A stretch of DNA of 64,000 bases from contig NC_053417.1 of the NCBI RefSeq assembly GCF_016859285.1, positions 27,619,206 to 27,683,205 on the forward strand. Reading direction: 5' to 3'. Positions 1 to 63,530 of the stretch are shown here, one piece after another. The notes under the pieces were generated by a model, which was not told the DNA's origin, did not search any database, and saw only the letters and a list, made by a program, of their open reading frames with translations. The stretch's first letter is position 1, and every line of letters starts with the position of its first letter. This DNA comes from Xiphias gladius. Its lineage: Eukaryota > Chordata > Actinopteri > Istiophoriformes > Xiphiidae. The translations under genes and the position numbers were made by a program.

Positions 1-287
1 GGCACACGGTGAGATGGCAAACCAGACCAGGTCGCGTGAGTCAGATGCCCAGGAGACGTGTGTGAATCTGTGAGACATGTAGTTTGAGTGTAGGCAGCTG
101 CGTTCTATTGTTTTCACATGATTTGATGAACTGGGTACGCTCACTCTGTCAGGGTTGTATCAAATCATCATCAACTCCGTCTTACTCTGAGACACATGCA
201 GCTGTTTCACATCTGTGGGTGTCCCCCCCCGTGTCTGGTTCACCTCCTTTTCTAACCCGATCTGCCGCTGTCTTGATGTCACGTCAG
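1..287 (+). other. lama5: lama5 intron (partial)
   Basis: Sequence upstream of the first visible lama5 exon. It ends in an acceptor (acgtcag before 288). I see no coding similarity. The open frame running through it is intron read-through into the exon. Confidence 0.6.
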
Positions 288-10900: not shown

Positions 10901-11407
10901 ACAAGGGAAGAGAGACATGGGGGACAGGGTTGCTGTGGCCCATGGTCAGCACTTCAAACCCCCGAAATGTTGTTCTGCTATAACAAAGACCAATGGCTTT
11001 TTTCTTACAATGAAAATCATAATTTGTTCCAATGTAACCACTGCAGTCAAAAATGCTATTGTTCCAGATTAGGAACCATAGTTTCCAAAACTGGAGGGGC
11101 CATGGGAATTTTCTCAAAAATGACAATTGGTTTGCATAAGGCCGCAAAGAAAAAGTTACGTGAAAGTAACATAGGTGTTTGGTTTAAAGTTACTTACATC
11201 ATCAACGTTCCCCGTCGTCCTGTCCTTCCAGCAGAAGTGAATCAGGGAGTCGTCCGACTGCTGGATGTACACCGTGCCCTTGCGTTTGTCTGGTGTCACT
11301 ACGTTGCCCTTCAGGGTCATTTTGCCAGCACGAAACTCCACCAGGTACTTGCTGGAGCTTCCCCTGGAGCCGCTTACCAAGCTTGGAAAGAGAGCACCTG
11401 ACGACAT
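4969..11407 (-). CDS. adrm1: Proteasomal ubiquitin receptor ADRM1 (Rpn13), nine coding exons
   Basis: Rpn13 sits on the 26S proteasome lid (via PSMD1/Rpn2), binds ubiquitin through its N-terminal Pru domain, and recruits and activates the deubiquitinase UCHL5 through its C-terminal DEUBAD domain. Coding exons, 5' to 3': 11198-11407, 9529-9645, 8722-8932, 8283-8361, 8006-8142, 6734-6865, 6098-6255, 5632-5734, 4969-5057. All phases join, giving 411 residues (human 407). Pru (about residues 15-130) shows [37 protein letters not shown] and [10 protein letters not shown] Gly/Ser/Ala/Pro-rich linker follows. DEUBAD (about 270-390) shows [26 protein letters not shown] and [16 protein letters not shown]. 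The end is the acidic EDDEDMSLD. The start is the ATG before SSGALFPSL, as in vertebrate orthologues. Two 3' coding exons are short and easily missed. The gene is convergent with lama5 and divergent from the dnajc5 5' exon. Confidence 0.95.
5058..5631 (-). other. adrm1: adrm1 last intron with dispersed repeat
   Basis: Lies between the last two coding exons. About 5250-5462 is a GCAACTAA-type repeat copy ending TTGCAGCTCTA. The rest has no recognisable content. Confidence 0.55.
6370..6648 (+). mobile_element. 3' tail of a CR1/L2-type LINE in an adrm1 intron
   Basis: The text 'AATTTTAAATCCAGGTTGAAAACC' (first part at 6401-6424), then a T-rich stretch, then GTAAAGCACTGCCTTTCTG, GTATGAAATGTACTGC and ATATAAACCTG is the typical 3' end of fish L2/Rex-type non-LTR elements. 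Only the tail is present, with no reverse-transcriptase domain. It is antisense to adrm1, between coding exons six and seven. Confidence 0.5.
6866..8005 (-). other. adrm1: adrm1 intron with a dispersed repeat
   Basis: Intron between coding exons five and six. About 7458-7798 is a full-length GCAACTAA-type repeat (GGGGCTGAAACAACAAG to TTAGTTGCAACCCTAG). The region 6880-7290 has no recognisable coding content; its open frames have no similarity that I recognise. Confidence 0.5.
7458..7798. repeat. Dispersed GCAACTAA-type repeat, both ends present
   Basis: Left end GGGGCTGAAACAACAAG, right end TTAGTTGCAACCCTAG. The two ends are inverted copies of each other, and the interior carries the family's GATTAATC/ATCGATTA runs. 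Confidence 0.6.
8362..8721 (-). other. adrm1: adrm1 intron between coding exons three and four
   Basis: AT-rich, no repeat or coding similarity recognised. Confidence 0.5.
8933..9528 (-). other. adrm1: adrm1 intron between coding exons two and three
   Basis: AT-rich sequence. The open frame that continues upstream of the [13 protein letters not shown] exon is intron read-through. No other feature recognised. Confidence 0.5.
10155..10182. repeat. Hairpin, 12-bp perfect arms
   Basis: GGCTTGCAACTT and AAGTTGCAAGCC separated by four bases (ACGC). The arms are exact. No known role. Confidence 0.6.
10598..10690 (-). CDS. Candidate short coding exon (31 codons) inside adrm1 intron 1, product unknown
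   Basis: On the minus strand an ATG at 10690 opens a 31-codon frame beginning [18 protein letters not shown] and ending DGSYEFL. It stops exactly in phase 0 at a plausible donor (CTG then GTTAGTG). A reverse CCAAT motif (ACCAATCAC) lies about 50 bases upstream of the ATG. The peptide looks coding in composition but I do not recognise it. Because adrm1 exon 2 starts in phase 0, it could be an alternative first exon of adrm1 that lacks the first 70 Pru residues. It could also be the first exon of an unrelated minus-strand gene, or a chance or relic frame. Confidence 0.3.
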
Positions 11408-12450
11408 CTTTAACTCTCTTTGTAAACAGGTACGAAAAGTGGAAGAAAAGAAGTTGTCAGGTTTACAAGACCATTCAAGCTGTTACTGTGGCATGATTGT
11501 TATTGATGTGAGTAACAAAACTACAAAAGGGCAGGAAACATAAGTTAGAATATTTACTGCTGTAGGAAACTCTCTGGTTCTGTTGTACCGCAAACACCAG
11601 AATTTCTCAGAATCATAATCAGGTTAATGGGTCAAGTATGTTTGTGCATTCAAGGTATTTGACTCCAATTTCTAGTGGTTCTAAATGTACTAACACACGA
11701 TACACAGTGAACAAAGCTGAACAAAGAAACATGACTATAATGTACAAGCAAGTAGGTGAAAATTTTAATTTAATTTAAATAAATAAATACGTGTGTGTGC
11801 ATATATATATATAAATTGGTTGATATTGTTTAATTTTAATTTCATTTCCACCTACTAATTTAGATACTTTTAGTGCTTACACCGTTACAACCCTTAATAC
11901 TCTCCACTACAATTAGTTTTACTTTAAAAAATGAACTTATATAGTTAAACCCTGAAAAGCATATTTTTAAACTTTTCAATCTGAAGCAAACGCAAATCTT
12001 AAAAGCATTCTGACATGAATTCGAACAGTTAGCTACTGTGGTGTAGTTTGGAGACTTTGGAGGCTAACGGTTTGTCATTTTTCATTTTAATTCCCACAAT
12101 TTAACACTGCGCCGACACCGTAGGCCTGATGTATGACCATCGCGGTGATAATTGTGTCCTATCCAGAAGTTTCAAAACTGCGGAGCCGCTCGTTTGCGTT
12201 ACAAAGACTTTTCAAAGCGACGCTGACAGAGGCAGCAGTTAGCCTGTTAGCCGCGCGGAGATCTGGCTGTGTCAATGCTAACGTTAGCCCATGACTCGGC
12301 TGAACCGACGAGCGACAAAGGCCAAAGTCTTACAATTGATCTACCTTGAGTCATTAAAAAACTCAGAAATAACGGTCACGTCTGAGTCGGAGCGCCCTTT
12401 GAGAAGTTGTACGTGAAACTGATGTTCACAAAAGAATCGCGTTCACATAC
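11408..12450 (-). other. adrm1: adrm1 5' intron
   Basis: Intron between the noncoding first exon (donor GTATGT on the minus strand at 12450) and the exon holding the start codon (an acceptor such as TTTACAAAG sits about 10 bases upstream of the ATG). Mostly AT-rich, with an AT/ATAT run around 11790-11812. No other feature seen. Confidence 0.45.
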
Positions 12451-31916: not shown

Positions 31917-34428
<2,512 letters not shown>

Positions 34429-41443: not shown

Positions 41444-43142
41444 ATGCAGAGGAAGGTAAGTAAACAGGTAAAAGGATGGTTGCAGTTTTAAAGTCTTCTC
41501 ATCTTTTATTTGTCTTTTATTTTTGTCCTTTCTTTTCTTTATTCTTTTGTTTTCTCTTCTTTTTTTATCTTCTCTTGATTTTTTTTTTGAGATTTTCTCT
41601 TTCTCTCTTCCATCTGAAATGTTTCTTTCATTATTATTATTATTTTATCTTGTCACGGCCTGTTTTACCTCTTCGTCTCTCGTCCTGTTTGACTTTTCTT
41701 CCATCTGTTTTCTTCTTCTGCATTTTTATCTTGTGTCACATGATACTGGTGGTTTTGTGTGGTTTTTCTTGCCCATTAATTCCAAAGCATTTTTTTAACA
41801 AGCTTTCAGCAGACACACTTTTAGGCCCATTTTCAACGTTCCAGGCAGCCACTAGCTTCAAATGACTGAATTTACACGTGGGCAGTCCTCTGATTAATGC
41901 AGTTGCTACCAGGTGCTGTTACGGTGGCGTGCTCGTGAAAGCTTTGACACCTGATCTTTCAGGTGAATCTGCAGCATTATGATGTGTGTTTTGGTCAAGC
42001 TCGAGCCTGGAAGACAAATTTTAGACCCACCCCCGGGTAAGTCGGTGCACACTCATGTTTGAATCCACAGAACTTTATTTTAAAATTATAGCGGAGATCC
42101 TGAAGTTTGAGAATATCACAAATGTGGTGCAGTCGTGAAAACATGGAGCTGTATGACGTTCACTCAGTATAAAGGTTATAGGTTTTATGAAGAGTGGCAA
42201 CGAGGTAACACAGAATATATACCCTTCACATTCAGACAGTGTGGAATAAGATTTTTTCCATCTTTAAAGCTACATAAGGGACAGAAAAGTGGAAAACTGG
42301 ATGTTTAAGGATCAGGAACATTGTCAAAACAAGTTAGTTGTTCAGCAGCTGCCGACTTTCCAGCCATTGATTACAGATTTCAGACAAGTTTCAAGACTCT
42401 GCAAGGTGGTTTTCGTAGAACTGAACTAAAACCAATCTAAAATGAGCCGTGTGTTTTTGAAAAACGGTCAGTGGTGACTCGAGTATGTGCAGTTTATACT
42501 GACTGGTCTAAAACGTGCAGAGGCACCAGCGCAGCCCCTTGAAAAACGGACAGCCGTGCCGGCTGACTGCAGCAGATTAGACCGGTTGTCAGTCGTCTCT
42601 GCTATCGACAGGAGGAGGTGAAGCTTGGCGGCGCAGCCACGTCGCCGCCGGCCGACCTGAGCTGCCTGCGGGGCGGCGGGGGAGCGGACCGCGAGGCGGG
42701 GCTGGCGACGCTGGAGAAACAGCTCATCTGCCCGATCTGCCTGGAGCTGTTCAGCAAACCGGTGGTCATCCTGCCCTGCCAGCACAACCTCTGCAGGAAG
42801 TGTGCCAACGAGCTCTACCAGGTGTGGGACACAGCACGCATGTAGGCCGCTGCTAATGTGTGTTTGGTGTGTGGCTCTGTACATGCAGTCCGCGGACGTG
42901 CGCTCAGTGCTGCACATGTATGTAGCGTGTGTGCAGGGACACACTCGTCTTTCATCCCACACTTTTTCTATCATGGGCCAGTACCGCGTTGTTCACACAC
43001 ACACACAAACACACACAAGATTGGTGCGTGTGTGTGTGCAGTGGATTATCAGTGTCTAAAATGGGATGTGTGGATGTTTAACTGGTTCGCTCATGTACAT
43101 GAAGGTCACCTGCCCTGACCTATATTTACTGCCATTGTTTAG

Positions 43143-46100: not shown

Positions 46101-47455
46101 CCCAGGTCCATCCATCATGGGTCACAACCTGGCCCCAGTCCAAGTGAGTGTGTCCAATACCAGTATTCTGTCCTGAAGGTCTCCAGGTCAAGAGGTAAAG
46201 TCCCACAGATAATAAATTAAGCCTCCCTGCAGGGAGATAGTCCACCAGTAGCGTCCAAAGGTTCAGAAATCATTTAGCAAATTTAATGAGATCCTGTTCT
46301 GCTCCTCCTGGTGGAATCCCCCCACATGGACGAACAAAATACCCACAATGTGAGCGAGGTGAACAGAGGCTTCTGGGTTTTTATTTAGACCAGTAAACCA
46401 AGGTTACTCAATGAGTTTGTGTGTGTGTGTGTGTTTGCTGCCCTCCGGGCTTCAGGGTGTTTACATGCTGGATGGTGAACAGGGGGTTTTCGGATCTCGC
46501 TCTTGTTCAGTGACCTGTCCTGAAGCAGCTCTGACTTCACCCAGGGAGACATTTGGAAGATTTCAAACATTCTCCACCGGTGCCACTGACTGATGAATAA
46601 CCCTGCTGCTAATTGTTAAAATCCCAGCATGCAGCTGTGTTGTCGGACAACAAACTCCAACTGCTGGGTGTTGAAAGGCAGACGGAGATACACAGCTGAT
46701 GAACGGTACAGTAGAAACTATCACCGCTGTCTTTATATTTGTATCATTTTTTGTTTTGTTTTGTTTTTTTCTGTCCAGCCCTCCCTGTTCCAGGCTCGGA
46801 CCACCATGCTGGTGAGCAGCGGCCGTTTCCGCTGTCCGTCCTGCAGACATGAGGTGGTGCTCGACCGCCACGGCGTCTACGGCCTTCAGCGAAACCTGCT
46901 GGTGGAGAACATCATTGACGTCTACAAGCAGGAAGTCAGCAGCAGCAACAATAGCACAAGGTGAAGAGAGACGACAAGTCATTTAAAACACACTTACACG
47001 GAGACACTCAGCTGGCGGTTTATTAGGTACACCTGGGTAAAACCAAGGCAGTCTTATAATGTTTGGTTTGTGTTGAAACTGTGTTAAAGAGGTGTTGATT
47101 GACCCGCGTGATCATTTTTGAGCTGTGGACTGTGGTGCCGCTGAGCTGCGCTGCATGACACAGACAGGTGCTGCCATTATTCGGTCCTCGTCATTCATAC
47201 AAACAGCCACCAGAGTGTAGCCACGGGTGTGTTCCTTCCATCTCTCGCCAGCCCCCTGCCGCTTCCTCCACATCCCGCTAAGCTGATGTGTCCGGACCAC
47301 GAGGGGGAGAAGGTGAACATCTACTGTCGCACCTGTCAGGTCCCCACCTGTTCCCTCTGCAAGGTGTTCGGGGCTCATCAGTCCTGTCAGGTGGCTCCTC
47401 TGACAGACATCTACCAGCAGCAGAAGGTATACAGTATGATAATACACTGTACGGT

Positions 47456-47531
<76 letters not shown>

Positions 47532-49015
47532 GTCTGTGTTGCGTGCGAGAGAAGAGTTGGACTGATGGGTTGGGGATGGAAACCATCATTACAGGGTCTT
47601 TTTTTCATGTTCCAGGACCTTTATACGGTGAGTTCTAAGCTACTGCTGCATATTCAGACTATACAATAATTATTGTTGGTCTTTGTTTTTTTTTTAAAAA
47701 GGTTCTTAGATACGTTTGTCCCACCTGCAATTCCTACTATTCTGCGATATTCCTACCAGATGGCAGATGTGTACAAAGCTGCAGCACCACTCCTCCTAGT
47801 GGTGGCGCAGCATGATGATAATGATGAAAATAGCGAACGCGCGGCTTAGCCCATTTGTATAGCGACTTTAATACAGGTCAGTGCAATTCAAAGTGCCTCA
47901 CAGGTGATAGTGAAAGAGACTAATGCACACGATATAAAATTAAAAAATCTATAAGTAAAACCAATAAAATAGAGAAAAAGATGAAATTTACAGAATACAA
48001 AAGAACTGTTCGGAGGTTAAAATGTAAAATGGTGTGCCTTTGATTGGGCTAGGCTAATCGCAACCTTTAAAAAAAAACTACTCAAGTTCATTTCCTCTCG
48101 TTTCTCAGGCGGAGCTGAGCGAAGGAGTCAGTTCGCTGGTGGCTGTCAACGGTAAAATCCAGGCGTTGATCAGTGAGCTGGAGCAGACCTGCAGAAACAT
48201 AGAGGTGTGTGGGCAAGTAATCCTAAAACGTCTCATCAAGTCTCACAAAAGTCCGAAATCTCAGTGTCTTTTTCCTTCGGGTTTTTAAACAAATAAATCT
48301 TGACTTGATATTCCTTAAGAAAAAAAAAAAAAAAATCAACCTCAGCTTCTGTTTTCTAATCCTGCCTATTTGCAGTTTCTTAAATGTAATTGATCTAATA
48401 TATGTTGTTGTTTTGCCAGCATGGTTTCATAAATTGCCTCTATGTACAATATTTGAACAGTGTTTTTTATTGTGTGGTGTCACTCACTATGAAAGCATGC
48501 GTTTTGTTTTTCGCAACCCTCTTCGTTTCGCCCTCAACAGGAGGACTGTAAGACCCGGAAACAGAGCGTGTGCGACAAGTTCGACGGCATGTTTTCCATC
48601 CTGGGGGAGAGACACAAGGTCAGGTTCTGTTCTGCTCTTTGACTTCGCTCGAAAATTCACTGTTTGGTGCCTTCGAGGAGCTTCGACAAGCGCGGTGGCG
48701 GTTGAACAGAATAGCGGCGATATTGGCAACAGCCGTACTCTGATACCACTGTCACATGTAGGAGTAGAAGGAGCAGTTCTGAAAAAAACAAACCCAAACA
48801 AAACACTGACCCAATAAATAATGTAATATTACATATGCAGTTCATTTGATACATGAATGGATGACTCACATTACAAAACTGTCAGTTCTCTTCAAGACTG
48901 TCCTGCAGAATATACTGATAGAGATTAGGAGATTAGCTCCTGCTGATATTCAGTACATGGCAAATATTTGTGTCGTATATGAAAAGTATATGTCCTGCAG
49001 CATTTTAATGGCAGC

Positions 49016-49049
<34 letters not shown>

Positions 49050-52000
49050 TCAGTACCAGTAGTAGTAGCAGTAGTAGTAGCAGTAGTAGTAGCAGTAGTA
49101 GTAGTAGCAGTAGTAGTAGCAGTAGTAGTAGTAGCAGTAGCAGTAGTAGTAGCAGTAGCAGTAGCAGTAGTAGTAGCAGTAGTAGTAGCAATAGCAGTAG
49201 TAGCAGTAGCAGTAGCAGTAGTAGTAGCAGTAGTAGTAGTAGCAGTAGTAGTAGCAGTAGTAGCAGTAGTAGTAGTAGTTGTAAATGTAGTGGTAGTTGA
49301 AACCGATGTTGTCACCATCATCATCTTCACCATTACTGCATCATCACCTTGAAGGCGATGACACAGCGAATCAGCTCCGAGCAGGACGAGAAGACGGGCC
49401 GCGCCCGGGCGCTGGTGCGTTGCTATGGAGACAGCATGGAGGCCAACGCCAAACTGATGGAGAGGGCGTTGAGCGGCATGGAGGAGCCGGACATGGCTGC
49501 TTTCGTCCAGGTGGGCGGTAGTGGGCACGTTTACGCCTTGAACGTTAGCGGCAGTGTCCATGGTGTTCACAACGGAGAAGGGCAGACGGATCAGTGTCGG
49601 ACTGAGAAACGACGGGAATGAAATTCCAAATTGCTGATACTCACAAAACAACCTCTCTCTGAATAAGTCTCGGTAACCCTGAAGTTAAAAAAAAGAGTTA
49701 TCTCTTTCAAGAGTCACCCGTGTACAAGAATAAACCTGTACAGTTTAAATGTGGACACACACAGAAAACTCCACACAAGTTCGAACACTTTTACATTAAA
49801 GTAAAGCAATTACAGGTAAAGTTTGATTTGGCTTAAAAAGGTCTAATGAAGAGAGGTCACCGAGTTGTTGCACTGTGGGAAATGTGGTCTTGAGAGTTGC
49901 TTTTGGACCTTGGCCAGTACTAGACACGTAACACTGTGAAAATTACTGTGCATTTCAGCCTCTACTGCCCCAACTTTCACTAGTCACTGTGCATCATATG
50001 CTTTTTAGGTGTGTATGGCTTTTTTTTGCGCAAATAAGAAGTCTTGAAAGCTGGGAAGTGATCCGTCTCTGAAATGCTCTCTCTCTCTCTTGTCTTTTTC
50101 CCTCTGCCCTCTTCCTCCCTCCAGAATTCAAGAGAGCTGATCACAAAGTGAGTATTGTGCTTTTATTTTACGCGATGAGATCCTCTGTTCAATACGTGCA
50201 TGTGCTTGACTTTGTATAGACCTTTTGTTGTTTATACCTTTTTATTATGTACTTTTTGGCTCTATTCTATACAGTAAATTCTTTGTTTATCAAAATTTTC
50301 CCCCCCTCGTATTCATTCATTACTCCCTGTACTTTCCTCAGAGTCATAGCAGCGGCCACCTCCGGTCCGGCTGAGACGCTGAAGCCTGGTTATGAGAATA
50401 TGAGCCACTACAAATTTAACTTTAGCCGACAGGAGAGAGCCCTGAGGAGCATAGACTTTATTAAAGGTAAGAAACAGGACTGTCAGACCTCAACACTGAG
50501 AGACTTTATTTTTGTAATTTACCAATTAAATTGAGAAAAACAAAACAATTTTGACTTTCAACTACAAAGAAAAAAGCAGCATAATTCGTTCATCTGCAAC
50601 GTTACGTGCAAAACTACCCGGCTGCAAAACGAAGCGCTGGTTTGGAAAAAAAAGTCGAATTATTTCAAATGCTTGGTGTATGTGTAAAGACTGAACTGTC
50701 AAGCTACCTGCCAGGAACAAGAGTGCAGATGTAACACACACTAGGTGACCTTATCTCTTCTGGGTTTTTTTTTTTTTTGCGGGGTTTAAGGTCTGTGATG
50801 AGTCTGGTATTAAAAAATGGTTGGTCGCTGCAGTCGGTGAGGAAGAGCCGGTGAGGAAGATCAGCCCCACCCAAGCACGCAAAATAACCAAAAATGAAGA
50901 AGCCGAAAGTCTTATCGATCAGCACCAATGCCTCGGTGATTGTTAGGCCAGATGCTTCCACCCCACTCCCTTTTCTTAAAAGAGAAACTTTACATTTTTT
51001 TACTGTATAACAATCCTAACATAATATTCTTAGGTCTTATTTATTTACATGGTTTTAGACAAGCGCTGTTTAGGTTCTTTCTAGGACGAAACATTTTACC
51101 TAATTGTATAAGAAATTTTATATATATATATACATATACATACACACAGACATCACTGTAATCAGTTTCCATTTCGAAGCATGTCAGCACTGAAAACCCA
51201 GAGCTGAAAGAAAAACCTAGACTCGACAGTAGGTGTTCGGGTAAATGCTGAATGTGGAAGAAAACTATCAGAGCTTGTAAACAGTTCCGTTTGAGACTGA
51301 GGTCTGATTATGTCTATTTTACAAGGTTTAAAATGCCTGAGAACTTCATACCGGAACTGATGAAGCCTCTTCGACACTAAAACAGCAAATACAGTAAATT
51401 TTTTGACTTGGTAGCTCAGATTGAGCTCAGTAGAACCTAGAAAATATCTAGCACCACATCATCTGAATATTTTAAAGTGAAAACACACACACTAAAACAC
51501 CAAAAAACTGCTAAATGTGAATCGAGTGCTGCAATACAAATATTAAATGTCGTTGAAGTACAGTTTTATTTTTGTTGTTTTGTATAGTGAAAGCTCAAAA
51601 ATGTGTCAACACACTATGACTTAAATAATCCTTACAGACAAGTCCAAGCAAGCATTCAGTATCAACAGGTTTTGTTGTCTCTCTCCAGCTGTGGAGGATG
51701 TTCCTGAAGAACCAGAGGCTGAACCAGAGCCAGAGGAACCCAAAGAGGCCTCTGTCCAGAACACTGAACCAGAGCACCACCAGGAAACCTCCATCCAGAA
51801 CCTGGAGTCTGTTGTAGAACCAGTTATAGAGACAATCCCAGCACTGATATCACCCCCAGGGGAACCAGTACAGACAGCAGCACCAACACCAACCCTGATT
51901 CCACCAGCTCCAGGACTGTTGAGAGACTCCGTGGAAGCTGAAGGGGCAGATCTGCAGCCAGCGACCGACGACGCAGACCTGAATGATGAAGGATCGGGTC

Positions 52001-55000
52001 CGATTAAGAACAAGGAGGAGGAGGAGGAAGAGGAGGCCGAGGGATGTGCAGCTCCTGACTCTGTTAAAGAGGTGAACATCTGTGAACCCCAGGAGGGAAT
52101 GAGCACACAACAGGTACAGTGCCACACCTGTAAAGAAAATCCTCTGCCCCAAACTCAAAACTACGTTTATTTAAGTGTAAACCGTCGAGGTTCTTTGGTA
52201 AATATATCAAGCTTCCCCTCTTCAGTGTTTATGTCAGCCACATGGAAGATGTTTTTAACGTAACAATGTTTTTCTCATGCAAACTATTTAAAGGACCACT
52301 GAGCCCATTAACTATCGTTTGTGTACGTATTACATCATTTTCCAAAGTATGAAAAACTTAAAGTCGTCTTAAGGATCATTTTAGACTGATTTCCTCCCTT
52401 TCACACAGCATCTAGTCTCACTTCCAGTCGTCTTTGAAAACCAATCACAGAGATTTGACATTTTCTGGAAGTAATCCATCATATTAAGCAATTTGTGGAC
52501 TACAAGTACATCTGGTTAAATAACTTTATTATTAGTTGGTGCTGGACCTTTTTAAAAATCTCTCCACAGTGCTGCATTCAAGAACTTCAACTTCTGAGAA
52601 TAAGACAAGCGCATTTCAGATGGCGTTAATGAAGTCTGTTGAGAAAACCATGAGATCCAGTGGACAAAATAACCACGGATGCAACCAAAAATACACTCAC
52701 TGATCACTTTATTAGGAACACCATACTATTACTGGGTAGTTCCCCCCTCTGCTCTCAGAACAGCCTCAGGTCTTCGTGGCCTGGATTCCACACGATGTTG
52801 GAAACTCCTCTGAGATTCTGGTCCATGTTGACCTGATTGCAGCACATAATTTCTGCAGATTTATCAGCTGCACATTCAAGTTGCCAGTCTCCTGATCTAC
52901 CACATCCCAGAGGTGTTGTACTGGATCCAGATCTGGTGACTGGGGAGGCCACTGAAGTTCACTGAACTCATGATCATGTTCATGAAACCAGAGTCGACTT
53001 CTGCTTTGTGAAATGTTGCATTATCCTACTGAAAGTATCCAATAGAAGATGGTCAACTGTGGCCATAAAGGGAAGCACATGGTCAGCAACAATACTCAGA
53101 CCGGCTGTGGCGTTCAAACCATGTTTGGTTGGTGTTAAGGAGCCCAGAGTGGAAGCAAGAAAACCTTCCCCCCACCATTACACCACCACCAGCCTGGACT
53201 GTTGACTCAAGGCAGGTTGGGTCAATGGATTCATGCTGTCTCCAAATTCGGACCCTACCATCTGCTGCCTCAGCAGAAATCTAGATCCATCAGACCAGGC
53301 TCCGTTTTTCTAGTCTTCAGCTGTCCAGGTCTGGTGAGCCTGTGTCCACTGCAGCGTCAGTTTTCTGTTCTTGGCTGACAGGACTGGAACCTGACCTGTT
53401 GTAGCTTATCCACCTCAAGGTTGGACGTGTCGCTTGTCCTGAGAAGCTTCTCTGCTCACCACAGTTGTAGAGAGTGGTTAACTGAGTTACCGTAGCCTTT
53501 CTGTCAGCTCCAACCGGTCTGGAAGTTCACCTCTGACCTCTCTCATCAACAAGGCGTTTCCGTCCACTGAACTGATGCTCGCTGGAGGTTTTTTGTTGTG
53601 CGGCACCGTTCTGAGTAAAAGCTCTACAGACTGTTGTGTGTGACAATCCCATCAATCTGATGTTTGATGTGAACATTAACTGAAGCTCCAGACCTGGATC
53701 TGCGGGATTTTATTCACTGCACTGCTGCCATGTGATTGGCTGATTGGATAACTGCTTGAATAAGCAGGTGCATGGATGTTCCTAATAAAGTGCTCAGTGA
53801 GTGTATAATCACCAGTGTTCATCTGATGCCAGATCTGGCCAGTTAAAGAGGCAGTGACTTGCACCCATTAGTAATTAGCAATGTTCATGGACGAATTATG
53901 AGACAAGGGCCCCTGGGCAAAGACTTGTAAAAGGCCCCCTGCCTCCCTGCTCATTGTGTTGTTTTTGTGTGGAAAATGGTCAATAATAGTTAATGGGCTA
54001 AAACATGCAGAACTATCTGAATGCACTAAATCTGTCTTCCTTCACATATCAGTGTGAGGGGGAAGGGGCAGCAAGCGATGCAGGTGATTATGTGGCACAG
54101 AGAGAGACAGAGGAAAAACAAGATGCTCAGGATGAAGAAGAAGAACTCCAGATGAAGGAGGGGCCAGATGCCATGTTTTACCCCAGCTGGTACGAACCAG
54201 GCCACAGGCGCAGGGTTATCCCTGCTCTGTCTGCACCTGATACAGACCAGATGATGTCCTCAACACAACCGGCCGGGGGTTCCCTTTCAGAGGCCAGGAC
54301 CCAGAGTGAGTCTCACAATGCAGTGCGAGCCATGTCTGACCTCCAGATCCAACCACAACCTCCGTGGAGTCAGGATTCCCAGCTCCCGTCTGAAACTCAG
54401 CCTCATATCCAGGAACAGGGCATGTCTTACCCCAACCAACCTCCCTCTGGACCTGCACTCTTCCCCCACCTGCAGCCACAACAACTCCCCCTTTCCACTC
54501 GGCTTTGCGCTCAGCCATATTTTCCTCTCTCTCAACCTCCACACCGCTCAGAAAACCAAACCCGAAATCTGCCTCCTCTTCGTGAATCCCAATCTCAACC
54601 ACCTAAAATGCCCGTCGAGTTGGACCGTGCTTTTATACCCGTTCCCCGAGTGCAGCCAGCCAGGCAGTCCCTGGGAGAAGCTGGAATAACCCAGGATGAA
54701 AATGAGGAGGAGGAGGAGGACATGCAGGGCTGGGTGTGCCTAACTGGGACTGTGGATACAAGTTTCAGTCTGGCGGAGGGTAGTTTTGATCTAGGAGATG
54801 CTAGTTTAGACAATTTTTCTGATAGTAATGATATTACATTGTCCGTGCTACCAGAGGAGACTAGTTCAGGGATGGATAAGGAAAACTTTAAGCTCAGGGA
54901 TGGAAGGGAAGGGGACGTGGAAGAGAGAGAGCAGCTTGGGGAGGATATTTTAGGTCTTAATGGGGCTTCAGAGCTGAAAGGAAAAGGGTTGGGAGGGGGT

Positions 55001-57105
55001 CATTTTGAAGCTGAGATGATGGAAAAAGGAAGCGTTTGGTCTGATGAAAGAGGTGAGGTGCTGAGGAATGATTTCTCCAGGCTGGAGAAGGATGCTGTAG
55101 CTACGAGGGATGGTAGCTCCAACGTGAAAAGTGACGGCCCGGATGTGGAGACTACAGACAGCTTGATATGGGGAGACCGAGATGCAAAGTTTGAGGCTGG
55201 TAGTTCGATGTTTGCAGAAAATAAACAGGAGGACGGGGCGAACACTGAGCAGCCTGAAGACTTTAGTTCCAAAATGGACACAAGTGTTGCTGAAAGTGAA
55301 GAGAAAATAACCTCCTGTGTCTCTCTCCAGGTCAGTGTTGTCTGGTTTTACCATCATCATCATCATCACCATTGTTGCCATCGTCGACCAGGCTCTTGCA
55401 CCCGTCACCCACCTGCTGATGTGGCTACACCTCCACACTGTCTTCTTCTTCTCTCTCGTTCTCTCTTGATCGTGGTTGTTGCTGTTTATGTTTCGCAGAG
55501 TCGCTTTTTGCAACTTGGTAGCCGCTGCTTCAGCTCTGTGTTCGAGGTCTCTGTGTTGTTTGGATGGAGGAAGGAGGGACCGAGGGAAAACGATTTCAAA
55601 AAGTATTTTACCCCCCAATATTAAAAATGAATCCCTATCAAGTGAAAAGCCTGCTCCGGAGCCGTTTTTTGACCATGAGTTAACAGTATTCTTCCATATA
55701 TTGAAAGGAATCTTGTTGATTTAATTTACAAATGTCTCTAAACACAGGTAGTGGTCGCCAAATACTTTTGTTCGCATTCTGCAACAGTTTTCTGATCCGC
55801 TGCTTGAATAAAAGGCACCATTACAAGTAAAAGTCCTGCATTCAAAATCCTACGTAAGTCAAGGTGCATAATTATTATCAGAAAAAGGCAGTCAGAGTAT
55901 GGAAGTAAAAGTACTCGTTCTGCAGACAAAGGTCCCCTGAAACTGATTGGTTATTATCTGTCACATTATTAGTTTATTAAGACTGGTGCATCAATGTGCA
56001 AGCAGTATTTTAATGTTTTAGCTTCTTGAGGTGGAGCTGGTTTTACCTCCTTTATATACAGTTTGCCAGTTTAGTCCAGCGGTTCCCAACCAAGGGTTCG
56101 GGCCCCTCCGAAGGGTCTCCAGATAAATCTGAGCGGTCATCAGATGATTAATGGTAGAGGAAAGAACATAAAACAAAGTTCTAATACATAATTTGTCTTC
56201 ATATTTTGGACTCCGCTCTCATTTTTTTTTTCTTTTTTTTTGTGAAACGTTGGATAATTGGACCCTTGTTGGGCCTTGAAACCAAAAATGAAACCATCTG
56301 AGGGGAAATCTCTCAGTGGGGTTGAAGTGTAAAGTAGCATTAAATAGAACAATAAGAAGGACCAAAGCACAAGTACAGGTACTTCAAAGTTGTACTGAAG
56401 CACAGTGCTCGAGTAAATGTACTTAGTTACTTTGCACCACTGTTCAGCAATAACATATTCCGTCAGCATGAGCTCACGAGTGGCCTGTTAGTCTTCCTCA
56501 TCGCTGTCAAGGCCTCATGGGAGCTGTGGTTGTTGAATTCTTACAGAATGGCAGTTGTTCTGTCTGCTTAAAGCGACATGGTACAAAAACTCAACTCTCG
56601 GGAAGAGTAGCAAGAGTACAGGTAGATACGGATTTCTCTTTCTGACAGAAAACGTTTCAGAGTTTCAGGGCGGCTGAGGAAACAGACGCTCCATGGAGAA
56701 AACGGCGGAGTTACAGATATTAGTGGAACAGAGGGAGTAGATCTCCAGAGATTTCTAATCACAAATTCATCATTTAGTAAATTATAAACAGTCAGATTAG
56801 ATGAGTTGGACTGGATGACTGCCTTCCTCCTTTCCCAAAAATTCTTCCCTTTTCATCAATCTTTTCATCTCATCACCTCAACCACTTTTCTCGTCCCTTT
56901 TCCTTGTCACACCATCCTTTCCTACATCCCCCCCCCCCCCATCTCTTCCTGTCCCCCCCCTGTATTTACCATCTCCCCCATCTACCCCTCTCTCTTCCAT
57001 CCCTCCATCTTCCTCCAGGCCGTCACTCTGCTCTTCTACCTGTTGGCCTTCCTGGTCATCCTGCAGAGGGTTTGGTCTTACATCGGCTGCTTCATTTGCA
57101 CATAA
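41444..57105 (+). CDS. trim101: MuRF-family TRIM E3 ubiquitin ligase (trim101-like) with long acidic tail and C-terminal membrane segment
   Basis: MuRF-type TRIMs are RING E3 ligases of striated muscle that bind microtubules and sarcomeres. Exons: 41444-41455, 42612-42821, 46779-46960, 47252-47426, 48109-48204, 48541-48618, 49355-49510, 50125-50147, 50342-50466, 51689-52113, 54053-55330, 57019-57105. All phases agree; 948 residues result. RING (about 44-98): CPIC, CQHNLC, CRKC, CPSCRH. The MuRF signature [20 protein letters not shown] follows. B-box 2 about 146-187 ([23 protein letters not shown]). Coiled coil about 190-303. COS box about 305-352 ([22 protein letters not shown]). The RING to COS part resembles TRIM54/55/63. 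The 570-residue tail beyond is acidic and Pro/Gln-rich, without a known domain, and much longer than usual. Exon 1 is the nearest ATG that splices in frame, because the RING exon has no Met and an upstream in-frame TGA at 42564. The name trim101 is by elimination among MuRF genes and is tentative. Assigning exons 11 and 12 to this gene is inference. Confidence 0.8.
43145..43180. repeat. (GT)n microsatellite, about 18 units
   Basis: Pure GT run in TRIM intron 2. Confidence 0.9.
44200..44740. repeat. Dispersed percomorph repeat, interrupted by a transposase relic
   Basis: The left part (TTGGCTTAGTTCAGCACAAA, GGGAGAAACAGCTACTGAGC, GGGCTCTGTCCACAGGTAAC, TAAATCCGCCCACC) and the right part (GGGGACTATGTGTCAGACCG, TTTTTTTGTCCGGGATGAGT, CTTTCCTGG-like, GGTTGCCTGGTAAACC) are two sections of a repeat I know from many fish genomes. 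The middle, about 44297-44632, is foreign to it and coding-like. A further 5' section of the same family is at 45750-45905 (AAAGGAATAGTTTAACGTTT, GATTGATACCGTTCTCATGT). Confidence 0.5.
44408..44632 (+). pseudogene. C-terminal relic of a Tc1/mariner-like transposase
   Basis: A 74-codon open frame reads [20 protein letters not shown], then [20 protein letters not shown], then [20 protein letters not shown] and a stop. This matches in order the end of Tc1-like transposases (HLWD-L-RRV--R----P-N---L--AL---W--IP---I--L--SM-RR--AVI-A-GG-T-Y). The catalytic DDE part and the N-terminal DNA-binding part are absent or unrecognisable. It is GC-richer than its surroundings and lies inside another repeat. 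It is not a functional gene. Confidence 0.6.
47000..47110. mobile_element. Short MITE-like remnant with TTTATTAGGTACACC end
   Basis: ACACTCAGCTGGCGGTTTAT followed by TAGGTACACCTG resembles one terminal repeat of Tc1-like fish elements (CACTTTATTAGGTACACC). No matching second end was found, so it is at most a one-sided remnant in TRIM intron 3. Confidence 0.35.
47457..47530. repeat. (GT)n microsatellite just after a splice donor
   Basis: About 36 GT units beginning 30 bases after the donor of the B-box exon (47427). UG repeats are known binding sites for CELF/TDP-43-type splicing factors. An effect here is inference. Confidence 0.95.
47850..48010 (-). mobile_element. 3' tail of a CR1/L2-type LINE, minus strand
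   Basis: Read on the minus strand, the segment gives a T/A-rich region then GAGGCACTTTGAATTGCACT and CTATACAAATGGG. This is the usual end of fish L2/Rex-type elements. Only the tail is present. It ends about 100 bases before the first coiled-coil exon. Confidence 0.45.
49009..49280. repeat. Compound (GCA)n/(GTA)n trinucleotide array
   Basis: About 90 triplets. A pure GCA block (49015-49046) is followed by mixed GTA and GCA units in repeating groups (GTAGTAGTAGCA). It is in TRIM intron 6 and ends about 75 bases before the acceptor of the coiled-coil exon at 49355. The Ala/Val and Leu frames across it are artefacts. Confidence 0.95.
50125..50147 (+). CDS. trim101: 23-bp TRIM microexon
   Basis: Encodes NSRELIT plus two bases of the next Lys codon. 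It sits between the acceptor CTCCAG and the donor GTGAGT. A 23-bp exon at the end of the coiled coil is a conserved feature of many TRIM genes. It is too short for ORF finding but is needed for frame. Confidence 0.8.
52114..54052 (+). other. TRIM intron 10 with Tc1-like element
   Basis: Donor GTACAG at 52114, acceptor CACATATCAG ending at 54052. More than half of it is the Tc1-like element at 52692-53805. The left 550 bases have no recognised content. Confidence 0.6.
52692..53805 (-). mobile_element. Degenerate Tc1-like DNA transposon (1.1 kb)
   Basis: The left end TACACTCACTGATCACTTTA and the right end (complement TACACTCACTGAGCACTTTA) form terminal inverted repeats of 29 bases with one mismatch. 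They begin and end with TA, the Tc1 target dinucleotide. The minus strand encodes a broken transposase. A clean stretch at about 52890-53000 reads [17 protein letters not shown] then VQHLWDVV, the SPDLNPIEHLWD signature of Tc1 transposases. Other parts are interrupted by stops and frame changes and the element is shorter than intact copies, so it is inactive. Confidence 0.85.
54053..55330 (+). CDS. trim101: Large exon of the TRIM tail (426 residues)
   Basis: One exon in phase 0 at both ends (acceptor ATATCAG, donor CAG before GTCAGT). The first half is Pro/Gln/Ser-rich ([31 protein letters not shown]), the second half acidic with many Glu/Asp/Gly. A more ordered-looking segment, [20 protein letters not shown], lies between. 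No domain is recognised and disorder is likely. The open frame continues past 55330 into intron, giving a His run from (CAT)n that is not coding. Confidence 0.65.
55738..56445. repeat. Dispersed percomorph repeats in TRIM intron 11
   Basis: Two abutting parts: 55820-56080 (AAGTAAAAGTCCTGCATTCA, GGAAGTAAAAGTACTCGTTC, TGGAGCTGGTTTTACCTCCT) and 56082-56445 (AGCGGTTCCCAACCAAGGGT, AGTACAGGTACTTCAAAGTT, TCGAGTAAATGTACTTAGTT, ACTTTGCACCACTG). These phrases are characteristic of common teleost repeats. I cannot name the class. Confidence 0.5.
57019..57105 (+). CDS. trim101: TRIM terminal exon A: C-terminal hydrophobic segment
   Basis: After the acceptor CTTCCTCCAG the exon encodes [16 protein letters not shown] then [12 protein letters not shown] and TAA. 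The first 15 residues are hydrophobic and would suit a tail anchor; two Cys near the end could be acylated. It joins exon 11 in phase 0. A donor-like CTCAG/GTACAC lies 43 bases after the stop (57148), so it might also be spliced onward. It is preceded by a long C/T-rich tract (56920-57018). Confidence 0.6.
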   Translation, partial: AVTLLFYLLAFLVILQRVWSYIGCFICT

Positions 57106-57149
57106 CACCAGCAGGGGACACATCCATCCTCACTGCTGCACAGCTCAGG

Positions 57150-58568
57150 TACACACGCCTGCTTGCTCCACCAGGAAGTGCTGTTCAAGGCTTTTATTCT
57201 GGAAAAAAAAGGAATAACTACGATGGAGTTCGCAATTTAAGTGTTTCTTTTCTAACATAATCTGCTGATTTTTAAGAATAACAATTGCCTAAAAAAATGC
57301 CTACACTGAGGAATGCTGGCATGAAAATGATGCAGGTATGCAGATTAATGGCTGGTCTGGCTTTACTCATTTCAAGTCTCGTTTGTAAAATATTTCTCCT
57401 TATAAAAATTGCATTTTGTGTATTTTGACTTGAGTCTACTGCCACTACTACTGCTACTTCATATTAATATCGAAAGAAGAAGAAAATGAAGACAAAAAGA
57501 AGGATCAATTAAAAAGAAACTGATAATTTTATATTAACATGTTTTGCTTTTCATGACAAATTAACCCTGATCCTCGCCAAGACAAGGAGGTAAAAGATTA
57601 AGACGAAAACAGGGCAGATTTTTAAAATTATAGATTCAAATAAAAACTACAAAAGGTGAAATAACAAATGAGAATGGTTTTCTATTAAAAACCAGAAGTG
57701 AAATCCTCTGACAACAGCAGTTTAGTCTTGTCTCTGATGACACCTTGTGAAACAACTGTGTAATTACAGTTCAGAATCAGGCAAAGGCCCAAGTCAGTAA
57801 ACACTAAAAATATGAGGATGAATAAACTGTCTGACCTGAATCTATCAACAGCTTTCGTGGTATTTTTTATAACTTAACTTTTTTTTCTTGCTGTCTTTAT
57901 GTGCCGGGAACGCTAACATGACCCTGCGCTTCACGCTGCATGATAAGTTTTGGAAATTTCATAGATATGCATTGAAGCGCTTCTTTTCTTTGCCTCTTCA
58001 CATATTGTTGCATGCATAATGTGAAGAGCCCTTCCGCACTGTAATTAAATACATTGTAGAAGATCATTGGAAATGTCTTTTGAGAGAAAATATTATTTTG
58101 CCATCAAGTCTTTTTCCTCGTGCAGCTCATTTGTCACGTTTGGGTAAATACAGGAAATACAGTACAGTGATAGTACACAACAAGGTGGCTCATTTTTATG
58201 TTGACTGTTTTCTGAGTCAAACTGTGTAACACTTAACAGAGTGTAGCCTCAGTAGCCTCTGTCAGCGCTGAAAAGAAGAGAGACAATCTGTCAGGTAAGG
58301 CGAAGAACGCTCAGGCATGTAGGAGGCCCCCCACCCTTTCTACAGGGGAGCAAGACCCCCCCAACCAGACTGAAAGAGACTATTTGTGGTGGTTTCGCAT
58401 CCATATTTAAGTGTTCAACCACTGAACATTAAATTAAACAACAGGCTGTTGTTCCTAAACAACAGTTCTAGTCTGATATTAATTTACCTCTTACTATAAA
58501 TATTTGTCCTGGTGACACTGTGTCATGGACATTCATATAGAACCGTCTGCTGTCCCTCTCTGCTCCAG
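57150..58568 (+). other. TRIM intron between alternative terminal exons
   Basis: AT-rich, no repeat clearly recognised. 58306-58380 is C-rich (AGGAGGCCCCCCACCC). Confidence 0.45.
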
Positions 58569-58712
58569 ATGGAGACTGAGACTAGGAGTCCTGCTGAGAC
58601 CAGTACCCCGCTCTCCTCCTCTACCTCCTCCACCTCCTCCCCCGCCCTCAGGGAGGCTCCTCGTCGACCCAGTTTCTGCTTCTCCTGGCTCAACCCCCTC
58701 CACAAGAAGTAG
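58569..58712 (+). CDS. trim101: TRIM terminal exon B: alternative soluble C-terminus
   Basis: After the acceptor CTGCTCCAG the exon encodes 47 residues and TAG in phase 0: METETRSPAETSTPLSSS, a Ser/Thr/Pro-rich stretch, then RRPSFCFSWLNPLHKK. Joined to exon 11 by skipping exon A it would give a 967-residue soluble form. It is equally compatible in phase, so it is either an alternative end or the ancestral end of the gene. There is no transcript evidence. Confidence 0.5.
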   Translation: METETRSPAETSTPLSSSTSSTSSPALREAPRRPSFCFSWLNPLHKK

Positions 58713-60045
58713 CGGAAGGAGAGGATCGTTTGGAGATGAAGTTTTACTGAAGAGATAAAGAAAGATGCACTTCACCTCCGGAGTCAGTTTCACCAGCCCA
58801 GCGTTGCTCCGAGACTGAAAACATACTTAAATCTGAGAACCTCAGGCACTACTGAGTTTCTTTAGTTTTATTATCACTGTTCTAAAGATTAATCCGGTTT
58901 AAAATACGTTAGCACTTCTGTGTTGTGTGGACAAAACAGGAGTAGATCTGCTCTGGATCTGAGTGTCTAAAGGGAAAAACGCTCACGCTGTCGATGTTTT
59001 ATTTTGAAAACTTATTGAGAATTAATTGAGTTTTTTGTTTTGTTTTTGGAAGCTGTTACACTTGGCACCGAAGGTCTCCACAAGCTTTATGTTTCTGACT
59101 TTAAGTAAGATCTGCAGAGGGTAGGAGTACAGTAGTGTATAAGAAGTATTTGGAATAGCAGCCGTTGCCGTTATCTCAGCAGCTGTAGTCACAGTAGAAC
59201 TAGTAATAGCAGCAGCAGTAACAGGGGAAGTTATGTTTTTGTAAAAGTTTGTGTATTAGCAGTTGAAGAAGATGCATAAGTACAAGTTTTAGTACCTACA
59301 GCAGCAGGAGCAGCAGCAGAGCAGTAGTAGTAACAGTGGCGGTATCTGGTTTACTGCATTAGCCTGTTACTTTGGGTGTGGGTGCGGGATGTGAACAGAA
59401 ATTCAGGTTGTGATCATTATCGCAGCATTTCAGTGTTTTATTAATTGTGCCAATATTTGAGCTCTCACGCATCAGCCAGCTCGCGCTGTTACGGATTTGG
59501 GTAAAATGGAACTGAAAAACATTCAGAAATAGACATAAGAACCTGCGTCTAGGTGTTGTTACTGATTTCTGTCAAAGGAAATCCAAGGTTTCAACAGCCT
59601 TTTGCTGGGGATCTGCAGTCGTGATCATAGTCCTATATTAGAAACAGGGAAAAGAATAGCTCTCATTGTAAAAGAGGAATCAGTGACTGTAGATGAAGGA
59701 AAGGATGAATTACAGTGGAAGTAGCTGTAGCAGTAGCAATAATAGAAGAGGTCACTGTCTTTTTTCTTATTAGAAAGATTTCAAACACTGCTAGACCCGG
59801 TCGAGACCCGGGCGTCCAGCTCGAACCGGTTTGAACTGGTGATGTCGGACGCCAGATGGGATTCAGTGTGGTTTGGTTTGGCACTGAAAACATTTGTGTG
59901 TGTGTGAGTTGAAGAGTCAAAAGTATTTTTAGGCACTTTTTGAGAGTTTTTTTTTTTTTTAAGCTGTTGTCTGTGCATGATGCAGGTCAGAGATGTCAGC
60001 TTTGTTGGGTATATTTATAGATTAAATAAATCTGATTTTGGTCAC
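58713..60045 (+). other. Putative 3' UTR of the TRIM gene
   Basis: Ends after AATAAA at 60025-60030. It contains a loose (AGC/AGT)n-rich stretch at 59160-59345 and no coding similarity. Assignment depends on exon B being used. Confidence 0.4.
60025..60030 (+). terminator. Putative TRIM poly(A) signal
   Basis: AATAAA in ATTAAATAAATCTG, followed by a GT-rich stretch (GTGTGTGTGT). Confidence 0.45.
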
Positions 60046-62642: not shown

Positions 62643-63530
62643 GTAGAATGAATGAATGGAGGTACCTCTTGTGCCAGACTCGGTCTAATTCAATTAAAAG
62701 TCCTCCACTGTATCCGCCATTCAAAAGCCAAACTCTCCGAAACATATCCTAATTTAGACAAGACGTGCGACGGATGTCGTGTTGCTCCAGCAGGGTTCAC
62801 TCCTATGTTCTGGACCTGCCCTTATCTACTTGTGGGGCATGTATTTCTTTTAAACATCTCTCCGAAACCACAGGCTAAACGTTTGGACAGCTATTTTTTT
62901 TGGGGGGGGGGTCCAGTCAATGAGCAATCACAGCCAGTGAACATGAAATTAAAGAATATCACAGCACTTGCATCATTATTGGCAAGAAGAGGAATTTTAT
63001 GGAAAAAGGATGAAGTTATCAGCCCCTCCTAAGTCATCCCTCTGGCTTAAAGACCTGATGATATTTATGGATCTTGGGAAAATCACGTTTGCACTGAGCG
63101 ACTCAGCTCACAAGTTCTATTCCACCTGGGGACAATACTTTAATGATATTAAGGGTCTTCAAAACTGTAGGTGAAGGGATTCATTTATCTTTATATTTAT
63201 TGCAACGTATTATTATTACTATTGTAATGGTTTTATTTTTTCTTATTTATGTATTTAAAGTTTTGGTTATTTTCTAACAGTATCATAACATTTTGAACTG
63301 GGCTATCGGCTGTTTTTTTGTTTTTGTTTTTTTTTGTATTATGTCTCTAGTAACAAACAGCAGTGTGCATGGAGGGTGAGAGACAGGGCTCGAGGAGACG
63401 GGATAAAGATTTGTTGATGGGTTTTTATTTAAAAGAAAAGCATATGTCAATTATCTCCCAATGTGCCTGATTAAGTCTGAGTTTGTTCAATAAAAACATT
63501 TTGCAAAAAACAAAACAAAAAAACAAAACA
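62643..63530 (+). mobile_element. 5'-truncated L1-type LINE, 3' end of ORF2 plus tail
   Basis: The plus strand reads, with frame breaks, the C-terminal part of fish L1 ORF2: GGTSCARLGLIQLKVLH, SKAKLSETYPNLDKTCDGC, FTPMFWTCPYL, then ALASLLARRGIL, SSLWLKDLMIFMDLGKI and SDSAHKFYSTWGQYFND. A region after CPYL is deleted or shifted, and the frame changes near 63000. A T-rich 3' part and an A-rich tail with AAACAAAAC units (63495-63528) follow. It is inactive and lies 0.4 kb upstream of the tpd52l2 start. Confidence 0.7.

What the first reader, a model, noticed from the sequence alone, without database searches (positions are those of the whole stretch)
57019..58712. MuRF-type TRIM with two alternative C-termini, one apparently membrane-anchored
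The large tail exon ends in phase 0 at 55330. Two downstream exons fit it: one (57019) ends the protein in a 15-residue hydrophobic stretch with Cys and aromatic residues; the other (58569) ends it in a Ser/Pro-rich soluble tail. TRIM54/55/63 are soluble. A tail-anchored MuRF would place a RING ligase on sarcoplasmic reticulum or another membrane. TRIM13 and TRIM59 show that a C-terminal anchor is possible in TRIMs, but I do not know it in the MuRF branch.
Basis: partly seen in the sequence, partly recalled or inferred. Interest (0 to 1): 0.75.

Follow-up and report, generated by a model that had tools for sequence, protein, structure and literature searches.

The report
Swordfish MuRF4 with swappable membrane tail
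This stretch of swordfish DNA is the end of a known muscle ubiquitin-ligase gene (TRIM101/MuRF4) that can finish its protein with either a soluble tail or a greasy, membrane-anchor-like tail, and the same pair of endings occurs in its relative MuRF2, including the human one, so the switch looks older than the split between the two genes.

Summary
Both terminal exons (57019, hydrophobic "B"; 58569, Ser/Pro-rich "A") recur in other fish. B was the best conserved of four segments compared (88% mean identity; core 78%, long tail exon 46%). AlphaFold2 makes B one 30-residue helix behind a disordered leash. A carp paper reports a C-terminal TM domain in teleost TRIM101 (PMC10048487), and MuRF2 p60B has a "highly hydrophobic C-terminus" (PMC3353113). 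My addition: MuRF4's two tails look homologous to MuRF2's A and B tails: same motifs, same branch point, B-tail similarity beyond composition (0 of 5000 permutations); a human TRIM55 isoform ends in B. So a splice switch between a soluble and a membrane-anchored E3 probably predates the MuRF2/MuRF4 split. Membrane insertion, target membrane and function are untested.

The parts
41444..41455 (+). Exon 1, MQRK, then gtaagt
   Evidence: Single match of the pattern in the window, read; start agrees with P0004
42612..42821 (+). Exon 2, first half of the C3HC4 RING ([21 protein letters not shown])
   Evidence: Junctions; Pfam RING models; identical to P0004
46779..46960 (+). Exon 3, second half of the RING and the MuRF-type box ([37 protein letters not shown])
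47252..47426 (+). Exon 4, B-box
   Evidence: Pfam zf-B_box 2.8e-8; PDB matches to TRIM63 and TRIM54 B-boxes
48109..48204 (+). Exon 5, coiled coil
   Evidence: helix in the model
48541..48618 (+). Exon 6, coiled coil
49355..49510 (+). Exon 7, coiled coil
   Evidence: PDB match to the TRIM63 coiled coil 4m3l at query 235-292
50125..50147 (+). Exon 8 (23 nt)
50342..50466 (+). Exon 9, C-terminal helical (COS-like) part ..[14 protein letters not shown]
   Evidence: the name COS is recalled
51689..52113 (+). Acidic/Pro tail exon ('E9'), ends ..GMSTQQ in phase 0: one of two branch points
54053..55330 (+). Large (1278 nt) tail exon ('E10'), ends ..CVSLQ in phase 0; absent from the deposited swordfish isoform and present in several other fish
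57019..57105 (+). Terminal coding exon B: hydrophobic tail [32 protein letters not shown]
   Evidence: In P0004, 100%; conserved; helix
57106..57148 (+). Possible remainder of exon B up to a donor CTCAG|GTACAC: a 130-nt cassette whose stop lies 43 nt before the junction
   Evidence: Donor and distance; three predicted proteins of other fish (P0008, P0013, P0046) appear by eye to join here to the A exon, in another frame
58569..58712 (+). Terminal coding exon A: soluble tail METETRSPAETS..RRPSFCFSWLNPLHKK-stop
   Evidence: homologous tails in P0001, P0002, P0019
60021..60030 (+). ATTAAATAAA, candidate poly(A) signal downstream of exon A; others at 57639 and 57821 lie between B and A

Best explanation
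This is trim101, which encodes MuRF4, a RING E3 ligase of the muscle MuRF family. From a phase-0 branch point the transcript ends in one of two alternative coding exons: A, a soluble disordered tail with the motif FSWLN, or B, a 28-residue hydrophobic helix at the very C-terminus. B makes the protein a tail-anchored E3: it is inserted after translation, most likely into ER/sarcoplasmic reticulum, and holds the RING-B-box-coiled-coil module on the cytosolic face by a disordered leash of about 140 residues, or over 550 when the large exon is included. The A/B pair is homologous to the p60A/p60B pair of MuRF2/TRIM55, so one inherited splice choice moves a MuRF ligase between cytoplasm/sarcomere and a membrane. 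Shown here: gene identity, both exons, their conservation, B-tail homology across the two genes, the predicted helix. Inferred: membrane insertion, which membrane, substrates, and that the switch is regulated.
For: Identity: the 522-residue B-tailed model equals P0004, NCBI trim101 isoform X2 of Xiphias gladius. Neighbours agree with the trim101 paralogon of PMC9353778 (passages): LamG, Rpn13/ADRM1 and DnaJ domains in the window. Both tails with long and short bodies occur across fish (e.g. short+B P0004, short+A P0019, long+B P0003, long+A P0001). B is the best conserved of the four segments compared in the window and 7 fish (0.88; core 0.78; 0.57; 0.46; these rows were chosen because they end in B). 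Homology: 16 TRIM101 against 7 TRIM55 B tails, anchored at the junction, mean BLOSUM62 37.7 against -10.1 (sd 7.9) when columns are permuted, 0 of 5000 as high, and only register 0 scores. A-tail motif shared: gar TRIM101 RHLFSFSWLNAL, TRIM55 RHVFSFSWLNSL. Both tails occur in a TRIM55 clade of SH-aLRT 100 and in the TRIM101 rows, and in gar isoforms X2 (A) and X4 (B). In three species' TRIM55 pairs the two forms are identical for 503-508 residues and part after ATSQ. In mouse, p60A joins exon 9 to 11 (PMC3353113, passage), so a skipped exon lies between, as here. Topology: one 30-residue C-terminal helix, pLDDT blocks 80-92, after a disordered stretch 352-490; no other stretch in the protein is as hydrophobic. 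In 58 TRIM101 rows the best 15-mer has median GRAVY 2.86 and the rest of the tail charge +1; in 64 TRIM55 rows 2.74 and -1; high hydrophobicity with low tail charge favours ER (PMC5450235, passages).
Against: No membrane insertion, localisation or RNA read was tested. The hydrophobic run is short (15) and is followed by a conserved polar pair (QR; HH or HY in TRIM55). With the Hessa scale (values recalled) the best 19-mer is favourable in the three fish TRIM101 tails tried (-1.40, -1.33, -0.79) but unfavourable in the three TRIM55 tails (1.24, 2.24, 0.55); 17-mers are favourable in all six. The deposited swordfish isoforms are gene-model predictions. TRIM54 and TRIM63 proper, sharks' B tails, lampreys and invertebrates were not sampled, so the date of origin is bounded only by the MuRF2/MuRF4 split. 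The tree was a quick search with midpoint rooting.
Confidence: 0.78

Rival explanations
1. The B tail is a conserved hydrophobic helix that binds another protein, oligomerises or acts as a degradation signal in the cytosol, and is not inserted into a membrane.
For: The hydrophobic run is short, the second half is amphipathic (moments 1.3-1.9 for the 13-mers around Trp), and TRIM55 19-mers score unfavourable on the recalled Hessa scale. L503, L509, W513 and I516 of P0004 are nearly invariant over 42 aligned proteins, which suggests a specific face.
Against: Median 15-mer GRAVY of 2.7-2.9 in 122 B tails, extreme C-terminal position and a single helix are the textbook tail-anchor layout; a conserved face is also compatible with helix packing inside a membrane.
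Confidence: 0.13
2. The B tail is a tail anchor, but for mitochondria or another organelle rather than ER/SR.
For: Short anchors with weak positive flanks can go to mitochondria; one of two spliced SLMAP anchors does (PMC2712456, abstract), and a tail-anchored DMPK isoform clusters mitochondria (PMC2778554, title and start of abstract in the listing).
Against: High hydrophobicity and low tail charge point to ER by the rule of PMC5450235 (passages), which was fitted to mammalian proteins.
Confidence: 0.27
3. The MuRF4 and MuRF2 hydrophobic tails arose independently and resemble each other by hydrophobic composition.
For: Hydrophobic helices easily look alike; TRIM54/TRIM63 and invertebrates were not sampled to show a common ancestor.
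Against: Similarity far exceeds composition and is register-specific; the alternative A tails also match; both follow the same kind of phase-0 branch, with the extra exon between the body and the A exon.
Confidence: 0.05
4. The 57019 open run is a chance or non-functional pseudo-exon.
For: Only that the + strand has 27 acceptor-like sites with short open runs, and that the run past 55331 is hydrophobic too.
Against: Deposited swordfish isoform uses it; conserved at 88% over 28 pairs of fish rows; present across the sampled teleosts, gar and bowfin.
Confidence: 0.01

Closest known systems
TRIM101/MuRF4 (named MuRF4 by Macqueen et al. 2014, cited in PMC7013991 and PMC8805411; the 2014 paper itself was not held)
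   Same: This is that gene: identical to the deposited swordfish trim101 isoform X2. A C-terminal TM domain in teleost TRIM101 is already reported (PMC10048487, passages).
   Different: In the passages I saw, the carp paper does not mention an alternative soluble tail, the large extra exon or a link to MuRF2 p60B.
MuRF2/TRIM55 isoforms p60A and p60B
   Same: Same two kinds of tail, homologous in sequence, chosen at one branch point, with the extra exon between body and A exon.
   Different: A separate paralog (own clade, SH-aLRT 100). Its B tail continues longer (..IQCLIFTLMDWI) with HH/HY in place of QR; it lacks the fish 1278-nt exon as far as the listed lengths show.
TRIM13 and TRIM59
   Same: TRIM E3 ligases with a C-terminal TM domain (stated in PMC10048487, passage).
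   Different: Not MuRF family; not compared in sequence here; the alternative soluble tail is not part of what I saw about them.
SLMAP and DMPK
   Same: Muscle-expressed proteins whose tail anchor is set by alternative splicing (PMC2712456, abstract; PMC2778554, listing only; the detail for DMPK is partly recalled).
   Different: Unrelated proteins; these show the mechanism, not kinship.

Membership tests
MuRF family (TRIM54/55/63/101) | N-terminal C3HC4 RING | tested here: met
   Pfam zf-RING_UBOX 1.4e-10, zf-C3HC4 5.2e-8
MuRF family (TRIM54/55/63/101) | B-box of MuRF type | tested here: met
   zf-B_box 2.8e-8; best PDB B-box matches are TRIM63 2d8u and TRIM54 3q1d
MuRF family (TRIM54/55/63/101) | Coiled coil followed by a COS box and acidic tail | tested here: met
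   Long helices 185-292 and 296-317, PDB match to the TRIM63 coiled coil, acidic tail by sequence. The COS box was judged from similarity and its name is recalled.
MuRF4/TRIM101 | Orthology to trim101 | tested here: met
   100% identity to NCBI trim101 isoform X2 of swordfish; outside the TRIM55 clade; DnaJ, Rpn13 and LamG neighbours agree with PMC9353778 (passages)
MuRF2/TRIM55 p60B | Belongs to the TRIM55 clade | tested here: not met
   Lies outside the 20-row TRIM55 clade: it works like p60B and shares its tail, but is the paralog MuRF4
MuRF2/TRIM55 p60B | Hydrophobic C-terminus from an extra exon, alternative to the FSWLN tail | tested here: met
   with PMC3353113 and PMC7555135 (passages)
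Tail-anchored membrane proteins | Single hydrophobic segment at the extreme C-terminus, none elsewhere | tested here: met
   Best KD windows at 913-931 of 944 in the B form; without it the best lies in the zinc-binding RING at 1.8-2.0; helix 492-521 of 522
Tail-anchored membrane proteins | Hydrophobicity sufficient for insertion of a 19-residue segment | tested here: inconclusive
   Favourable in 3 of 3 TRIM101 tails and 0 of 3 TRIM55 tails on the recalled Hessa scale; 17-mers favourable in 6 of 6
Tail-anchored membrane proteins | Post-translational insertion and membrane residence | not testable with these tools
   Needs fractionation or imaging

The most novel reading that the evidence does not exclude
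Vertebrate muscle inherited, from before the split of MuRF2 and MuRF4, a membrane-anchored arm of the MuRF ubiquitin system, human MuRF2 included: a splice choice between an FSWLN tail and a helix with a conserved Leu/Trp/Ile face that docks on a specific SR/ER membrane partner, so that MuRF ligases police membrane proteins of the calcium store as well as the sarcomere.
Probability: 0.3. Interest if true: 0.72.

Novelty: new member of a known kind. Interest (0 to 1): 0.45.

Why it matters
MuRFs are studied chiefly as soluble, sarcomere-directed ligases of muscle wasting. If the B tail anchors them, part of the family works on a membrane, and the choice between A and B becomes a relocation switch. 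PMC3353113 notes that no antibody against the hydrophobic p60B C-terminus was available, so this isoform has been hard to see. The homology found here means the question can be asked in zebrafish trim101 and mammalian TRIM55 together, and the very high conservation of the 28-residue exon says it is worth asking. The window's own case is an ordinary member of this set.

Tried and rejected
Considered and rejected: (1) chance open run at 57019. (2) Novelty of an anchor within the MuRF branch: rejected after PMC10048487 and PMC3353113. (4) In-frame fusion of part of the B exon to the A exon, as in predicted proteins P0011, P0015 and P0045 (..ILQR|METET or similar): kept only as a curiosity, since it needs a weak donor inside exon B and the proteins are predictions.

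Led nowhere: tail-only protein search with a bird TRIM55 tail found only birds (16 hits of 18 candidates), so it said nothing on mammals; the full-length marmot query did. The bacterial promoter scan and tRNA scan are uninformative here. Searching the window's own assembly was not possible. The second AlphaFold2 model (A-tailed gar form) had mean pLDDT 54 and no structure in the A tail. No fold search was run.

Limits of counts: one search lists 120 of 465 proteins and one search lists 120 of 2080; tail classes are by my own pattern and hydrophobicity threshold, which differed slightly. For one search I chose 16 and 7 tails by hand, two TRIM101 ones (Gadus, Latimeria) typed because they are shorter. 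One search used 77 of the proteins held.
Full report
What is there. The window is fish DNA holding a complete MuRF-type TRIM gene on the + strand, from exon 1 at 41444 to a 3' region ending near a poly(A) signal at 60021-60030. Twelve junction regions were read by eye and checked. The spliced model gives four open forms: 522 residues (short, hydrophobic tail), 541 (short, soluble), 948 (long, hydrophobic) and 967 (long, soluble), none with internal stops. The first is letter for letter P0004, which NCBI names tripartite motif containing 101 isoform X2 of Xiphias gladius. The window is therefore swordfish, or a sequence indistinguishable from it over this protein.

Identity of the gene. RING and B-box are found by Pfam; the nearest solved B-boxes are those of TRIM63 and TRIM54. 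Names in the protein listing are mostly TRIM101 for the nearest fish. The window also holds LamG, Rpn13/ADRM1 Pru and DnaJ domains; I recognise LAMA5, ADRM1 and DNAJC5 in them (recalled, except for the domains). PMC9353778 (passages) lists dnajc5 and trim54/55/101 among the gene families around the duplicated crh genes. TRIM101 is the gene called MuRF4 (PMC5795982, passage), said to be lost in birds and placental mammals and without known targets (PMC7013991, passage).

The two tails. Exon B (57019-57105) encodes [28 protein letters not shown]; exon A (58569-58712) encodes a 47-residue Ser/Pro-rich tail ending RRPSFCFSWLNPLHKK. Of the 120 listed homologous clusters, my rule put 66 in a hydrophobic class, 28 in the FSWLN class, 2 in both and 24 in neither. 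All four combinations of long or short body with A or B occur: P0004 short B, P0019 short A, P0003 long B, P0001 long A. So the large exon and the tail are chosen separately, as far as deposited gene models tell. In the window and seven long B-tailed fish proteins, mean pairwise identity is 0.88 for B, 0.78 for RING to COS, 0.57 for the acidic exon and 0.46 for the large exon, gaps ignored (28 pairs; with gaps as mismatches 0.88, 0.70, 0.48, 0.32). The rows were chosen because they end in B, so this measures how little B changes where it exists.

The link to MuRF2. The listing also held TRIM55 proteins of birds, lizards, a salamander and bichirs that end in a hydrophobic tail (e.g. [33 protein letters not shown]), beside others that end in RHVFSFSWLNSLNE. 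Perera et al. [quoted passage not shown] PMC7555135 (passage) says p60B arises from an additional exon. A search with a marmot TRIM55 listed 120 of 2080 clusters, of which 60 end in A, 47 in B and 13 otherwise; a human record named isoform 3 (P0178) ends in ATSQ|ELVICLALLAFLILHYIWSQIQCLIFTLMDWI. That this record is p60B is my inference. In Rhinolophus sinicus, Octodon and Macaca nemestrina the A and B forms are identical for 508, 503 and 508 residues and part right after ATSQ.

Are the tails homologous? Anchored at the junction without gaps, 16 TRIM101 and 7 TRIM55 B tails score a mean BLOSUM62 of 37.7 over 22 columns; permuting the columns of one set gives -10.1 with sd 7.9, and 0 of 5000 permutations reach the observed value; sliding by 1 to 4 residues destroys the match. 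The A tails match too: gar TRIM101 RHLFSFSWLNAL, bichir RHVFSFSWLNSF, TRIM55 RHVFSFSWLNSL. On a tree of 77 cores without the tails, TRIM55 is one clade of 20 rows (SH-aLRT 100) holding both tails, and the remaining 57 rows hold both tails as well, with gar isoforms X2 (A) and X4 (B) from one contig. The simplest account is one A/B pair in the common ancestor of MuRF2 and MuRF4, which PMC9353778 places in the early vertebrate genome duplications. I did not sample TRIM54, TRIM63 proper, lampreys or invertebrates; the literature says MURF1 is not spliced and MURF3 has one variant (PMC3353113, passage).

Does B anchor the protein? AlphaFold2 gives residues 492-521 of P0004 as one helix with pLDDT blocks of 80-92, after a stretch 352-490 below 50 (whole-model pTM 0.28, so only local statements are safe). 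In 58 TRIM101 B tails the best 15-mer has median GRAVY 2.86 and the residues behind it charge +1; in 64 TRIM55 B tails 2.74 and -1. By the rule of PMC5450235 (passages), hydrophobic anchors with low tail charge go to the ER, which in muscle means SR/ER. Against this, the run is short and a polar pair follows; on a recalled insertion scale 19-residue windows are favourable in the three TRIM101 tails tried and unfavourable in the three TRIM55 tails, while 17-residue windows are favourable in all six. I put anchoring at about 0.85 and SR/ER as the membrane at about 0.55, both inferences.

How the choice could be made. B lies between the body and A, so skipping it gives A. A donor at 57148/57149 would make B a 130-nt cassette whose stop lies 43 nt before the last junction, inside the usual 50-55 nt limit for escape from nonsense-mediated decay (recalled). 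Two AATAAA signals between B and A (57639, 57821) equally allow B to be a terminal exon of its own. Reads would tell.

What is known and what is not. A C-terminal TM domain in teleost TRIM101 is in print (PMC10048487), as is the hydrophobic tail of MuRF2 p60B. In my ten paper searches I saw no paper that joins the two, that shows either form on a membrane, or that calls a MuRF tail-anchored; but Macqueen 2014 was not held, I did not try to fetch Pizon 2002 or Perera 2011, and most subscription papers are missing, so this is weak evidence of absence. The finding is a sound reading of a real gene, already annotated; the added value is the shared, old A/B switch.

Noticed in passing
window 55319-55335: The site tctctctccag|gtcagt may work both ways: donor of the large exon and, in predicted isoforms of Anarrhichthys and Lycodopsis (P0027, P0028), apparently acceptor of an exon that starts VSV(G/V)WFY after GMSTQQ. 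P0021 and P0047 read through the donor. The run past 55331 is itself hydrophobic (15-mer mean 2.65).
   Followed up: partly
P0065, P0068 (Albula, Anguilla) and P0098, P0115, P0117 (lizards): A third type of TRIM101 C-terminus ending in ..LWLDM or ..LWLHD; no counterpart was found downstream of the large exon in the swordfish window (one unrelated-looking LWL match at 63028).
   Followed up: partly
window 52691-53806: A 1.1-kb element with 30-nt terminal inverted repeats, 97% complementary (ATACACTCACTGATCACTTTATTAGGAACA), in the intron before the large tail exon; looks like a DNA transposon.
   Followed up: partly
window 66-569 (+), 8711-11482 (-), 32508-33373 (+): Neighbouring genes: a LamG domain (LAMA5-like), Rpn13/ADRM1 Pru domain in two exons, and a DnaJ domain followed by a cysteine string (DNAJC5-like). 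Pfam hits; gene names recalled.
   Followed up: partly
P0012 (Scortum barcoo), P0046 (Etheostoma spectabile): Predicted proteins that seem to fuse TRIM101 with neighbours: P0012 carries Pfam PF04201, which I recall as TPD52; P0046 begins like the DNAJC5-like exon of the window. Probably gene-prediction joins that reflect synteny.
   Followed up: no
window 49015-49300: A long AGC/AGT trinucleotide tract in the intron just before the exon at 49355.
   Followed up: no
P0093, P0095 and other names: Database names are unreliable in this family: Amia 'TRIM63 isoform X2' and Pristis 'TRIM54-like' fall in the TRIM55 clade, and several 'TRIM54-like' fish and reptile proteins fall with TRIM101.
   Followed up: partly
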